NCBI GenBank assembly: GCA_023627715.1
Contig: JAMAHW010000064.1
Coordinates: 1 to 64,000 of the forward strand
DNA from: Periconia sp. R9002
Taxonomy: Eukaryota; Ascomycota; Dothideomycetes; Pleosporales; Periconiaceae
DNA length: 64,000 bases
Reading direction: 5' to 3'
Shown here: one piece after another, positions 20,985 to 47,566 of the stretch
Numbering within the stretch: the first letter of the stretch is position 1
Layout of the letters: each line of letters opens with the position of its first letter
The notes under the pieces: model-generated
The model's database searches: none
Seen by the model: only the letters and a program-made list of their open reading frames with translations
What the model was told of the DNA's origin: nothing
Program-made: the position numbers and the translations under genes

Positions 20985-23257
20985 ATGAATCCCAATAAAT
21001 TTCGAGCCCTCTTGCCTGCCACAGACCAATCACGTCAGACGCTTGAACCGGAGCGGCCATCTAAGAGAAAGAAGGGTGTGCTCGCCTGCGACTCCTGTCG
21101 ACAGAAGCGGTCCGGCTGTGACGGCCAGCGACCAGTATGCACTGCCTGCGTGAAGCGCGGCTCAGAATGCGTCTACGCTGGGGAGGGTGAGATGCGCCCC
21201 GTCCACCTCAAACGCGAAAACGTAGCACTGCGCGAGAAGGTCGATGCTTTTAATCAGATCCTGCAGCTTCTCAAGACTATCCCACCAACTACGGCGCAGC
21301 ACGCTTTGCAACGCTTGTTGGTAGGGTCCGACCCGGTTGATATGCTACAGTCCCTTAGGAGTGAGGCTACAACCGCTAGTCCGTCCGAGCAACAAGTTTT
21401 CCGCTCCTTCTACCCTAGCATACATTCGCAGTGCGAGCTCGAGCTCCTCGTTCGACATCCAAGAGCATATCCCGCTATCAACCCGTCGCTTGCGCGAAGC
21501 CCAATAGAACAGCTCGCTATACCTCCTGATACGAGTAGAGACGAGGATACTGTGGAAGGGGCACCAGTCTACTTCGACGGGCGGCTCTCCAGGCTTAAGA
21601 TTGATTTCTGGACGACTGTACCTGTATCGAATGAAGCGGCCGCTGAAGCCATCTCGGCATATCTAGAACACCAACATGCTGTATGGGGAGTGTTTGATGC
21701 TCAACTTTTTATGCGCGACTTGATAGAACTACGGTTTGACTTCTGCTCTCCCTTTATGGTTAATGCGTTACTAGGTATTGCGCTAGTATGTTAGGTATCC
21801 ATAAGTAACTACTATAAACTAATGCTGACCAAGGGTAGCAAAGTCTCGCTCTAACAGATAACCATGCGTTGGAACTGAGCTTTCAGTGTGAAAAGGAAGC
21901 TGGGAACTTATTCAAAGCGGAAAGTGATCGTGACTCGTTACCCTCCCTCGCCGGCGTAGCAATGCTCTATATTTCTCTTACGTTACATGGGAATCGGTCA
22001 GGTGCTTTCAAGTATATCCAGGAGTCGACTGCTAAAATGACAAGAATGGGGCTACTGGAAGATGTGTTCACCATAGCGTCTTCACAGCCAGACCCCATCA
22101 CCACTCAAGAGACACTAGCAGCTATGAGTAGAACTGCATGGGGTGTATTCAACATGATAGTGTAAGGTCTCGAGAACTAACTCGACCGACCGTATTCATT
22201 GATCATGGACGCAGGCAGCAAATCCGCTTGTTTCCACCGTCCTGGCTATCTCTCACTGGGTTTCCAACGGTCTCGTTCCCACAAACAATGGAGCACATGG
22301 ATACCGTCGACGCAACGGACACAGAACAATACCTTCAAGATGCGAAGTATATCCATGCCACGCAAGTCCACCTAGTGTTTTGCCGCTTCTACACCCTCGT
22401 CAACGAAACGCTGCTTTACTATCGCAACGAGGAAACGGGTACACCTCCAATATCCTTCGCCCTTTCCAAGTTCAGCAAATTGCTCAAGCTCGTGGATGAT
22501 TTACCAGCGTGCATGACTCAACCAACCGAACCAACAAACGCAACACTGATGTTCTTGTAAGATGTAAACCCATACTTCACTATCCCCCCCCCCCCCCCTC
22601 CTTTCCCCACAAACCCCGGCAATACACACACAATCCCCAACCTCACTGCCACGCTATCGCAAAAACCAAACCTAACGTTCATCCCAAGCATGCTCCTCCA
22701 CACCGCAGTAATGGACATCTTCCAACCCTTCATCGCCGCGCAAGACCAACACGCATTCACCTCGTACCTCCCCCTCTCCGCCTCGCCCCTCACAATCTTC
22801 GCTGCGTCCGCCGCGCAACTAAAAGGTGTCAACCCCCTCCCCCCCCTCCTCTAGACCTAATCACCACCCCTCCCGCCACGACTCCTGCATCTTCTACGCA
22901 CACCTCGCGCTCACCCTCCAATCCGCCATTCTCTCCGTCGGCGAGGTCGGGCTCGGCATTCTCGCTATGGGGGTTAACAAAGGCGCTATTACTAGTGACG
23001 AAGCTTTGCGGGTTAAGACGTTGTTTGATGATGGGCTGGGAAGGGGGATGGTGGTGGAAGGAGAGAGAGAGAGTGATCCGGTTGGGTTTCGGTTGGATGT
23101 GCTGGCGGGGGATGGGGTGGGGAAAGGGGGAGGTGAGGGGGAAGGTGGGGGTAGGGAGTGGGAGGTGGGCACGTTGGCGATGCAGATTCGGGAGTTGGTG
23201 CTTTGGGAGGAGTTTGTGGTTTTGGGTGGGGAGGGGGATGAGGAAAATGAATCATGA
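20985..23257 (+). CDS. Zn2Cys6 transcription factor next to the PKS
   Basis: The ATG at 20985 begins a basic N-terminus (KRKKG) followed by the binuclear zinc cluster CDSCRQKRSGC...CTACVKRGSEC near residues 35-62. A short helix with coiled-coil character comes next, then the fungal middle homology region (NALLGIALQSLAL). Intron 1 (21786-21838) is GTATGT to GGTAG in phase 0. Intron 2 (about 22163-22216) and a C-rich intron 3 (about 22561-22688) also join in phase. After the exon ending near 22825, the last part (HDSCIFYAHLALTLQSAIL) lies in another frame. The C-rich tract 22830-22853 between them offers no intron that fits the phase, so a sequence error, rare splice or real break is possible. 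Its position beside the PKS suggests a pathway-specific activator, but this is inference. Two dispersed-repeat copies bracket the gene. Confidence 0.8.
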
Positions 23258-23894
23258 GGTGTTGTGGTGAGGTGGGGTTTGGTTGGTTAGAGATGGGCGT
23301 GAAGTAAAAAACAATGTGCAATGTAAAGCTGCTTGGGAATATTGTGGCGTTGGGGTAGGTGGGCTACCTTAACTTGTTTTTTCATTCCCCGTTTTGAAAA
23401 GCAGAGTACCGTGTTGTACGGCTAGATATCTAGAATGTGTGTAGAGTAGGGGAGCTAGGAGCTAAGTTAGCTAGCTAGACAGAATACTACGCTGTGGCTT
23501 GTTGAGAAGGAGGTGCAGAGTGAAACAGATAGATTAGTTGTTTTGTAGTTTAATAGTCTACGTCGACTTCTCACGTGCGCAAACAGTTAGTCGAGAACGA
23601 TACCAAGTGTTCTTACGCCTACCGGTGTCGATACCCAGGGTAGCAATACTTTGTGATGATCAAAAATTGTGTTTCATAGTCTACGTCGAAATAAGACAAG
23701 TAAAAATATCTATTTATAGGATACCCAATTGATATATAAATTTTCTCACTTTATTCCACAAAATCACCAAATATAGGAACCCTAAGAAGCAGTTGGACAG
23801 GTAAACTCGTTCTTAACTTTCTATAGTGGAGAGCAATGAAAATGAGTCGATTCTTGTCCTGTGACAGATCCTCATATATGAACTACTTAACACA
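23258..23894. other. Intergenic between convergent regulator and PKS, with repeat copy D
   Basis: 637 bp between the ends of two convergent genes. It contains repeat copy D at 23609-23664. The 14-bp word ATAGTCTACGTCGA occurs on both sides of that copy, near 23553 and 23676. No gene is supported. Confidence 0.6.
23609..23664 (+). repeat. Dispersed repeat, copy D
   Basis: The reference copy: GCCTACCGGTGTCG, then ATACCCAGGGTAGCAATA and CTTTGTGATGATCA. It is flanked by a perfect 14-bp direct repeat (ATAGTCTACGTCGA near 23553-23566 and 23676-23689), as might be left by an insertion or a local duplication. Confidence 0.82.
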
Positions 23895-45691: not shown

Positions 45692-47566
45692 CTATATACA
45701 AAATGACTCAAAGAATTGCTCAACTTCATCCCAGGCCCCCAACGGCGCCGAAAAAGCAGAAATACCATCCGGTCTCACCACAGCAATCCCCCCAATATCT
45801 GGATACATCCCATAGCGACTATGCGCTACGGCCTCGAGATCAAAGTACAAATTCCCAATCGCATCGCCATCAAAAACTGTCCACGCACTACTTGCTGTGC
45901 CCATAATAATCGTCAAAACATCCGCCACACGCCTCCACTTGGCGTCCGACTCATTTGATCTAGTAACCTTCTCACGTAGCGTAGCATACGTCCCCTTCGT
46001 AAGAAGCGGCTGTCCGGCAAAGATAACGACTTTCCACTTCCCTTTCCCACAACCATTCAACACACTCTGCAACCGCACAGGAACAGACGGCCCAGGTTCA
46101 TGCAACAACGCATCGGGGGCCCTCGAACCAGGCACAATCGACGACGCCGTAGGCGTCCTACTAATCACGCTCTCTCCATACGCAATCGCCAAGCCCGTCG
46201 TAAACCCAATATTCGTCTGCGAGATGCTCTTGAGCGCCTCGACGGGACTCAAGCCCAGCGCCTTGAACTCGGCGGGAATATCGCCTGAAATCGCCGCCGC
46301 GACGCGCGTGTCGATGTCGATGAGTTTCTGCGCCACGCTGCGGCGCTCCGTGTTGTAGGTTGCGAGGACTGAGGGGTGGTACCAGTTTTTGAGGGTCCCG
46401 GAAAGTTTCCAGGTCAGGTTTGAAGCGTCGTGGATCCCTGTATTCATGCCTTGCGCGAACCCGGAAGAATGCGTGTGCCCGGCGTCGCCGGCGAGGAGGA
46501 TGAAGGGGGATGGGTGGAAAGAGGTTGCGACTTTTTGTTTGATGCTGTGTTATCGTAAGTTTATGGGATGAAAAGTACGTCAAAGGAAAGAAAAAAGATG
46601 AGGAAAGGGATGGGGAGAGGAAGTTGGCCACTCACGTATAATAAGTCCACCAATCCACCCTCTCAAACTCCAACTTCAACGGTTTGACCGCATCAGCCGC
46701 TTCCTGCAGTGCCTGTTCCCGCGTCGGCCCATCTGGGTACTTCTCCTGCAACTTCGCATTCAGCGCGAACCCAATCCGATACGCGTCGCCGTCTAATTTG
46801 ACCCACAGCACACTACCATGCGTCTCCGTATATATCGACGCGAACGAGAGGTTCGGCTCCGGCATATCAGTCTTAATGCGCCCATCAATCCGAATCCATT
46901 TGTACGTCGTGTCGCTGCCTTCCATCTGCGTGCCGCTGAGTTGGCGGACTGTAGATTGTCCACCGTCCGCTCCAACAAGATATTTACAGCGAATAGTGTG
47001 CTCGTCTTCTTTCTCATGCACGATCTTCGCCTCTACATTCCATCCCCCATTTCCTTCTCCCTCGCGGACTTTATACCCAATGAGTCCCCAGCCAAACCGC
47101 ACTTTCTTTCCCCCGTACTCCGCATACTTCCCAGCAAACACTTCCTCTGAGACTTTATGCCTTACATTCACCACGTAGTTGTGGAAACTCGTCTCCATGG
47201 CCGGGAACACGCTCTGGAAGGTAGGTCGCACAACCTTTCTCCCATTTTGATACTCCGCGTACGAGCGGCCGTAGAAGCCTTTTTGGAAGAGCGGGGCCGC
47301 GACGTCGAAGTGTTCGAGGAGCTCGAGGGAGCGCGGGTATAAGGTACAAGCGCGCCCGTGGGAGATTTGGGCTTCTCGCTGTTTTTTCTCTGTTATTTTT
47401 CGGTTAGAATCGAGGTGTAGGGGAAGGGTAGTGCTTGTAGTTTGTGGACGACCATACCTATGATGATCGTGTCGATGCCTTGTTGTACGAGACCTAGAGC
47501 TGTGAGGAGACCCACTGGACCTGCGCCGCAGATCAAGACGTCGGTTTTTTCGATGAAATTCGTCAT
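45692..47566 (-). CDS. FAD-dependent aromatic monooxygenase (phenol hydroxylase/PHBH family)
   Basis: Three exons on the minus strand (47566-47458, 47389-46636, 46544-45692) join in phase to 571 residues. The FAD-binding GAGPVG motif is at residues 14-19. The short motif YLVGADGGQSTVR follows in the middle, and ILLAGDAGHTHSSGFAQG carries the second FAD contact (GD). A thioredoxin-like C-terminal domain follows, as in phenol 2-monooxygenase. These flavoenzymes use NAD(P)H and oxygen to hydroxylate phenols, anilines or benzoates, sometimes with loss of the carboxylate. In this cluster a 4-aminobenzoate-derived ring is an obvious candidate substrate, but that is inference. The promoter carries three motif copies related to those of the other cluster genes, so it is probably part of the pathway and marks its right edge. 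Confidence 0.92.

What the first reader, a model, noticed from the sequence alone, without database searches (positions are those of the whole stretch)
20985..47566. Hybrid PKS-aminodeoxychorismate-NAT biosynthetic cluster
Seen: a highly reducing PKS, PabB-type chorismate enzyme, NAT, LovC-like enoyl reductase, P450, FAD aromatic hydroxylase and two Zn2Cys6 regulators sit together with convergent and divergent pairing. Known: each family is typical of fungal secondary metabolism except the PABA-branch synthase and NAT, which are unusual partners. Inference: the product joins a reduced, C-methylated polyketide to a 4-aminobenzoate-type ring. I know of no described fungal cluster with exactly this set, but cannot search to confirm that.
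Basis: partly seen in the sequence, partly recalled or inferred. Interest (0 to 1): 0.86.

Follow-up and report, generated by a model that had tools for sequence, protein, structure and literature searches.

The report
Fungal polyketide–aminobenzoate gene cluster
A fungal gene cluster pairs a polyketide-building enzyme with its own supply of an aminobenzoate precursor and an enzyme of a family that joins acids to such aromatic amines; related gene sets sit together in other fungi, pointing to hybrid natural products for which I found no description.

Summary
The window (43-Mb genome; host inferred near Periconia) carries a highly reducing PKS (KS-AT-DH-MT-ER-KR), a fused PabA-PabB aminodeoxychorismate synthase, an arylamine N-acyltransferase (NAT), a LovC-like trans enoyl reductase, a P450, a phenol-hydroxylase-type FAD monooxygenase and two Zn2Cys6 regulators. 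The PabAB is a second copy, 41% identical to another in the genome. Judged by equal contig lengths, listed homologous PKSs share a contig with a PabAB and/or NAT in 12 cases (3 with both); all 12 fall in one PKS clade, against 0 of 94 outside it. Best reading: chorismate → ADC → PABA-type arylamine, which the NAT acylates with the polyketide, releasing and coupling in one step. The cluster NAT has Val before its catalytic Cys, as in the ansamycin amide synthase GdmF, unlike the genome's other NATs. Product and reaction are inferred. Against: the PKS's ACP is out of frame in this assembly; the closest PabAB relatives have no listed PKS or NAT; 7 of 10 PabAB-linked PKSs have no listed NAT; no ADC lyase is in the window; other GdmF hallmarks are missing. 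Ten full-text searches of an open-access library listed no such fungal cluster.

The parts
20985..22854 (+). Zn2Cys6 transcription factor 1 (C-terminal exons uncertain; coding may run to about 23270)
   Evidence: own gene model; PF00172 39 bits on a model whose first exon is read without the intron the caller had put there
23895..24110 (-). ACP-encoding stretch of the PKS, in a different frame from the KR upstream of it
   Evidence: frame piece given apart: PF23297 35.7 bits, PF00550 32.4 bits; stop ends at 23895; frames read
24019..31739 (-). Highly reducing PKS, in-frame part KS-AT-DH-MT-ER(motif degenerate)-KR; exons 30469-31739 and 24019-30415. The caller's further intron 26778-26864 is false: the frame is open there and homologues have the residues
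   Evidence: Pfam, gene model, corrected; active-site motifs compared with 101 of 120 homologues
32186..34633 (+). Fused PabA-PabB aminodeoxychorismate synthase, 815 aa, read as one exon (frame open throughout)
   Evidence: PIKGT, GICLGFQ, FHPES, SMTGAP motifs
35686..36703 (+). Arylamine N-acyltransferase (NAT), 317 aa; exons 35686-36065 and 36130-36703; Cys in RGGVC, His in VHLN, Asp in VDTSHG (triad assigned by alignment)
36714..37902 (-). LovC-like trans-acting enoyl reductase; exons 37631-37902, 37440-37569, 36714-37382
38343..40146 (+). Cytochrome P450, haem motif FGAGIRECWG; exons 38343-38600, 38652-38792, 38848-40146
43251..44556 (+). Zn2Cys6 transcription factor 2 (Zn cluster split by an intron)
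45692..47566 (-). FAD monooxygenase, phenol-hydroxylase type with C-terminal dimerisation domain; exons 47458-47566, 46636-47389, 45692-46544

Best explanation
A secondary-metabolite cluster that makes an arylamide. Inferred steps: the cluster PabAB turns chorismate and glutamine into 4-amino-4-deoxychorismate; an ADC lyase encoded elsewhere in the genome gives 4-aminobenzoate. The PKS, helped by the trans enoyl reductase because its own ER has lost the NADPH-binding glycines, builds a C-methylated reduced chain. No thioesterase, condensation or reductive release domain was recognised among the cluster genes, so the NAT takes the chain from its thioester onto the catalytic Cys and passes it to the aniline nitrogen: release and coupling in one step, as RifF/GdmF-type amide synthases do within one molecule. 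The FAD monooxygenase oxidises the aromatic ring before or after coupling (ring hydroxylation, or decarboxylative hydroxylation to an aminophenol); the P450 oxidises the chain or ring. Shown here: the gene set, catalytic motifs in PabAB, NAT and the PKS domains, the degenerate ER motif, the LovC-like partner, and co-location of PKS, PabAB and NAT elsewhere. The chemistry and order of steps are inferred.
For: Co-location by equal contig length (species names agree in the 8 of 12 cases that have names): PKS+PabAB+NAT in Aphanocladium album (PWT90_02938/02932/02934), Xylariaceae sp. FL1272 and one metagenome contig; PKS+PabAB in 7 more, PKS+NAT in 2 more, NAT+PabAB on one further contig. All 12 linked PKSs lie in one clade of 25 plus the window (support 0.979). 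PabAB is an ADC synthase and a second copy. NAT keeps Cys-His-Asp and has Val before the Cys in the window and in 6 of 6 close homologues that cover the motif (P0001-P0005, P0019), against W/Y/Y in the genome's three other NATs found; GdmF also has Val there, and its paper ties residues 72 and 74, flanking the Cys, to a two- to threefold larger cleft (PMC11903869, passages). The ER motif GG[VT]G is lost in the window and 13 of 13 PKSs of its subclade, kept in the other 12 of 12 of the clade; the partner ER is closest to LovC. The five NAT-linked PKSs are all in the ER-dead subclade.
Confidence: 0.45

Rival explanations
1. The NAT only caps the amine with a small acyl group (acetyl or malonyl), or protects the PABA-derived amine in passing; the polyketide is released by another enzyme, coded elsewhere, and joined through the ring carboxyl or ring carbon, or not at all.
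For: The nearest solved structure is Fusarium verticillioides NAT1 (FDB2) N-malonyltransferase; fungal NATs were assayed with acyl-CoAs such as acetyl- and malonyl-CoA (PMC4542470, passages); NAT not listed for 7 of 10 PabAB-linked PKSs.
Against: The cluster NAT departs from the genome's other NATs (23-39% local identity, changed Cys and Asp motifs); no other release enzyme was recognised among the cluster genes.
Confidence: 0.23
2. The extra PabAB is a self-resistance or back-up copy: the product hits the folate/PABA branch, and the second enzyme protects the producer. The polyketide carries no aminobenzoate.
For: Duplicate housekeeping-type genes in clusters are a known sign of self-resistance (recalled); PabAB has its motifs and is diverged from the other copy (41%); it is found with the PKS more often than the NAT is (10 v 5); Periconia and others have the PabAB without a listed PKS.
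Against: An arylamine-acylating enzyme beside an arylamine-making enzyme is better explained by supply and use, at least in the NAT-bearing branch.
Confidence: 0.14
3. The cluster is decaying in this strain: the PKS lost a usable ACP and no product is made, though relatives have intact copies. (Can be true together with the best explanation.)
For: KR and ACP in different frames; neither the gene caller nor reading by eye found an intron to account for it; no other long copy of the stretch in the genome.
Against: PabAB, NAT, ER, P450 and FAD genes give open models; the break lies in a GC-rich linker (GC 0.587 for 24001-26000) where an assembly error is possible.
Confidence: 0.4
4. PABA (as a thioester) primes the PKS as starter unit, as in candicidin or aureothin, rather than being acylated at the end.
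For: Bacterial PABA synthase-PKS pathways do this (recalled).
Against: No CoA ligase or loading domain recognised among the cluster genes; the NAT would then have no evident role.
Confidence: 0.05

Closest known systems
Ansamycin amide synthases RifF / GdmF with their aminobenzoate-using PKSs (actinomycetes)
   Same: NAT-fold Cys-His-Asp enzyme joining a polyketide thioester to an aromatic amine; Val before the catalytic Cys in GdmF and here
   Different: There intramolecular, with 3-amino-5-hydroxybenzoate as PKS start unit (PMC11903869, passages) and a modular PKS; here a separate PabAB, an iterative fungal PKS and a full-length fungal NAT that keeps FENL; no reaction shown
LovB/LovC (lovastatin nonaketide synthase and trans enoyl reductase)
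   Same: HR-PKS with C-methyltransferase, degenerate in-cis ER and a LovC-like partner
   Different: LovB ends in a condensation-like domain and its chain is released by LovG (recalled); here nothing follows the ACP stretch and a NAT is present
Fusarium NAT1/FDB2 N-malonyltransferase (7qi3)
   Different: FDB2 reads RGGRC and VDVGMG and serves benzoxazolinone detoxification; cluster NATs read GGVCD and mostly VDT[SG]HG and sit beside PKS and/or PabAB
Fungal NATs in T1PKS clusters listed in PMC11213898, Table 1 (e.g. Acremonium chrysogenum NAT2)
   Same: NAT inside a PKS cluster; A. chrysogenum (synonym of Hapsidospora chrysogenum, recalled) also has PKS P0153 and PabAB P0032 of these families, on different contigs
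   Different: The table gives no product for it and the main text has no hit for PABA, aminobenzo- or chorismate; supplements not seen; whether NAT2 is this NAT was not tested
Candicidin / aureothin (bacterial PABA synthase with PKS)
   Same: Dedicated PABA supply for a polyketide (recalled)
   Different: Modular bacterial PKS with PABA or its nitro form as starter; no NAT (recalled)

Membership tests
Fungal aminodeoxychorismate synthase (PabAB) | Score above TIGR01823 cut-off; fused GATase and PabB; Lys of PIKGT | tested here: met
   648 bits v 442.55; PF00117+PF04715+PF00425; PIKGT
Arylamine N-acetyltransferase family | PF00797 with Cys-His-Asp triad | tested here: met
Canonical xenobiotic NAT | RGG[W/Y/F]CxExN and DVGFG-type motifs (consensus recalled; as seen in the genome's other NATs) | tested here: not met
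   RGGVCDQIH and VDTSHG
RifF/GdmF amide synthase | FENL motif replaced and Arg four before the Cys replaced (GdmF, PMC11903869) | tested here: not met
   window keeps FENL and the Arg of RGGVC; only the Val before Cys is shared
RifF/GdmF amide synthase | Unstructured interdomain loop and widened cleft | not tested
   no pocket or loop comparison was made on the model
RifF/GdmF amide synthase | Transfers a polyketide thioester to an arylamine | not testable with these tools
   needs an enzyme assay
Highly reducing fungal PKS with trans ER (LovB type) | KS-AT-DH-MT-ER0-KR-ACP plus LovC-like partner | tested here: inconclusive
   Domains found, ER motif lost, LovC-like gene nearby; ACP not in frame
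One biosynthetic cluster | Gene set kept together in other species | tested here: met
   PKS, PabAB, NAT only: 12 linked PKSs of 23 with contig data in the clade, 3 with both partners; ER, P450, FAD enzyme and regulators not tested

The most novel reading that the evidence does not exclude
Fungi have their own, independently evolved counterpart of ansamycin amide synthases: a NAT subfamily (RGGVCD…VDT[SG]HG) that off-loads an iterative highly reducing PKS by intermolecular aminolysis with a PABA-derived arylamine made in the same cluster, giving an undescribed class of polyketide arylamides in Sordariomycetes and in the lineage of this window, within a wider PKS-PabAB family that spans more classes.
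Probability: 0.33. Interest if true: 0.78.

Novelty: new variant of a known kind. Interest (0 to 1): 0.6.

Why it matters
Iterative fungal PKSs are known to be released by thioesterases, reductases, condensation domains and acyltransferases (recalled); release by an arylamine N-acyltransferase would be a new way and would name a product class (N-aryl polyketide amides) that can be looked for in cultured fungi. The gene trio and the NAT signature give a simple genome-mining rule, and an in vitro assay of the NAT would put the question to a direct test.

Tried and rejected
Anthranilate synthase: rejected; TIGR01823 passes its cut-off, the TrpE models shown do not (25 of 46 matching families were shown), and the motif is PIKGT. 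Primary folate enzyme only: unlikely; the genome has another PabAB on C17, 41% identical; which copy serves folate was not tested. A PabC partner in the cluster: none; the five Aminotran_4 matches lie on other contigs. An intron joining KR and ACP: none found by the gene caller or by eye. Another long PKS copy in the genome: none for 23600-25600; besides the window itself only a 78-base match and a dispersed repeat. Coding in the gap 40147-43250: no stop-to-stop frame of 100 aa or more, no other copy. Structure prediction of the window's own NAT: not tried, because its spliced protein is not read from the DNA in one frame; the A. album homologue P0001 was used. The typing of the third chorismate-binding gene (C7) failed with a script error and was not repeated. 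An error of mine: the PKS sent to the protein search and used lacked 29 residues that my gene caller had cut out as an intron (26778-26864); one search shows the frame open there; none of the motifs discussed lies in that stretch. Literature: ten searches, all of open-licence PMC papers; among the listings I saw no fungal cluster with PabAB and PKS (searches returned nothing; one search listed 25 of 463). Subscription papers and MIBiG were not searchable. Papers seen: PMC11213898 (passages and section 7), PMC4542470, PMC11903869 and PMC11161606 (passages only); the rest as listings or abstract starts.
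Full report
What is there. A gene caller trained on the window's long frames, corrected by reading of frames, gives eight cluster genes between 20985 and 47566. By Pfam and NCBIfam they are a Zn2Cys6 factor, an HR-PKS, a fused PabA-PabB, a NAT, a zinc-type enoyl reductase, a P450, a second Zn2Cys6 factor and a phenol-hydroxylase-type FAD monooxygenase. Flanking genes look unrelated: an MscS-type channel gene at about 16.8-19.1 kb and an aldose 1-epimerase at 51.6-53.1 kb. 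No transporter, thioesterase, condensation domain or CoA ligase was recognised among the cluster genes.

The PabAB. It scores 648 bits against the fungal ADC-synthase model (cut-off 442.55) and carries the PIKGT lysine and the GATase motifs. Its best PDB match is an ADC synthase (8hx6). The genome has chorismate-binding matches at three places: this gene, a PabAB on contig C17 that is 41% identical, and one on C7 that I did not type. In a tree of 116 of the 120 listed homologues (four under 700 aa dropped) plus both own copies, the window gene is sister to Periconia macrospinosa (support 0.973). That is my only ground for placing the host in Pleosporales. No ADC-lyase family match lies in the window, so PABA would need a lyase coded elsewhere.

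The PKS. KS, AT, DH, MT, ER and KR are found, and its active-site motifs agree with those common among 101 homologues longer than 2400 aa (of 120). The NADPH motif of the ER reads GAESSEGS where intact enzymes have AAGGVGQ. The nearby enoyl reductase is closest to LovC among solved structures. This is the LovB/LovC arrangement. The ACP is present (PF00550, PF23297) but lies in another frame from the KR. Intact copies exist in relatives. I cannot tell a real loss from an assembly error in a GC-rich linker. My model used in searches lacked 29 residues cut out by a false intron.

Co-location elsewhere. Homologues were listed for NAT (23), PabAB (best 120 of 1705) and PKS (best 120 of 7991). I matched them by equal contig length; 117 of the 120 PKS rows give a length. 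In the 8 of 12 matches with names, the species agree. Three contigs hold all three genes: Aphanocladium album (66 kb; locus tags PWT90_02932, 02934, 02938), Xylariaceae sp. FL1272 (735 kb) and a 67-kb metagenome contig. Seven more hold PKS and PabAB: Pseudogymnoascus (V499_00041 and 00043), Chaetomidium, Delitschia, Xylariaceae FL1019, two metagenome contigs and Coniochaeta (3.2 Mb, weak). Two hold PKS and NAT (Diatrype, 553 kb; a 205-kb contig). One 31.5-kb contig holds NAT and PabAB. All 12 linked PKSs fall in one clade of 25 plus the window (support 0.979, midpoint-rooted tree of all 120). Of the clade 23 have contig data: 12 of 23 are linked, against 0 of 94 outside (Fisher p 1.8e-10; kinship ignored). 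Accidental near-equal lengths are rare: 4 of 14,040 PabAB x PKS pairs lie within 50 bases without being equal.

A pattern inside the clade. The ER motif GG[VT]G is lost in the window and in 13 of 13 PKSs of one subclade (support 1.0) and kept in the other 12 of 12. All five NAT-linked PKSs are in the ER-dead subclade (5 of 13 v 0 of 10 with contig data; p 0.046, on related sequences, so weak). This suggests that a trans ER and the NAT came in at about the same time to a family that already had the PabAB; whether the others of the subclade have a trans ER was not tested. If so, the older members use PABA in another way, or have NATs too distant for the search. ER loss alone is not tied to the trio: a sister clade (P0155-P0173 and others) has also lost the motif in the members shown, with no listed partner.

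Results against. Periconia macrospinosa, Byssothecium and Massarina hold PabABs 72-78% identical to the window's, yet no PKS or NAT of theirs is in the lists. The listed Rhypophila and Hapsidospora PKS and PabAB lie on different contigs (for Rhypophila perhaps different isolates). Thirteen of the 25 clade PKSs have no listed partner on their contig (some are on short contigs; two have no contig data; the database is clustered at 90%, so a partner may be represented by another isolate, as perhaps in Monosporascus). PABA was among the poorer substrates of fungal NATs tested in print (PMC4542470, passages). The GdmF authors favour CoA or pantetheine thioesters, not ACP-bound chains, as its substrates.

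How it most likely works. Chorismate to ADC (PabAB, well supported by family), ADC to PABA (lyase elsewhere, inferred), C-methylated reduced chain (PKS + trans ER, well supported as a type), chain transfer to the aryl nitrogen by the NAT (inferred, a little under even odds), ring and chain oxidation by FAD enzyme and P450 (inferred; the FAD enzyme's nearest solved relatives are phenol 2-monooxygenases, 3-hydroxybenzoate hydroxylase and VibO, so ring hydroxylation and other oxidations are both open).

What is known. A 2024 survey lists fungal NATs in T1PKS clusters, including Acremonium chrysogenum NAT2, without a product (PMC11213898, section 7); its main text has no hit for PABA, aminobenzo- or chorismate. 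Ten searches of the held library listed no fungal cluster with PabAB and PKS. I count this as a new variant of a known kind (fungal HR-PKS cluster), with a possible new release mechanism.

Noticed in passing
window 23601-23664: A roughly 60-base element with at least 39 further copies (80-94% identical) on many contigs of this genome, beside the 3' end of the PKS gene; nature unknown.
   Followed up: partly
P0137 (Coniochaeta ligniaria): A PabAB of 1066 aa whose domain list also holds PF03171 (2-oxoglutarate/Fe(II) dioxygenase), on a 3.2-Mb contig that also bears a clade PKS.
   Followed up: no
P0155-P0173 (Alternaria, Pyrenophora, Plenodomus and others): A sister PKS clade whose shown members have also lost the GGVG motif of the ER but have no listed PabAB or NAT on their contigs.
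   Followed up: no
P0024, P0025, P0026: The named PabABs closest to the window's (Periconia, Byssothecium, Massarina) occur without a listed PKS or NAT; their setting was not seen.
   Followed up: no
window 40147-43250: A 3.1-kb AT-richer gap inside the cluster with no stop-to-stop frame of 100 aa or more and no other copy in the genome.
   Followed up: partly
window 1364-3115: A HET-domain (heterokaryon incompatibility) gene at the window's left end.
   Followed up: no
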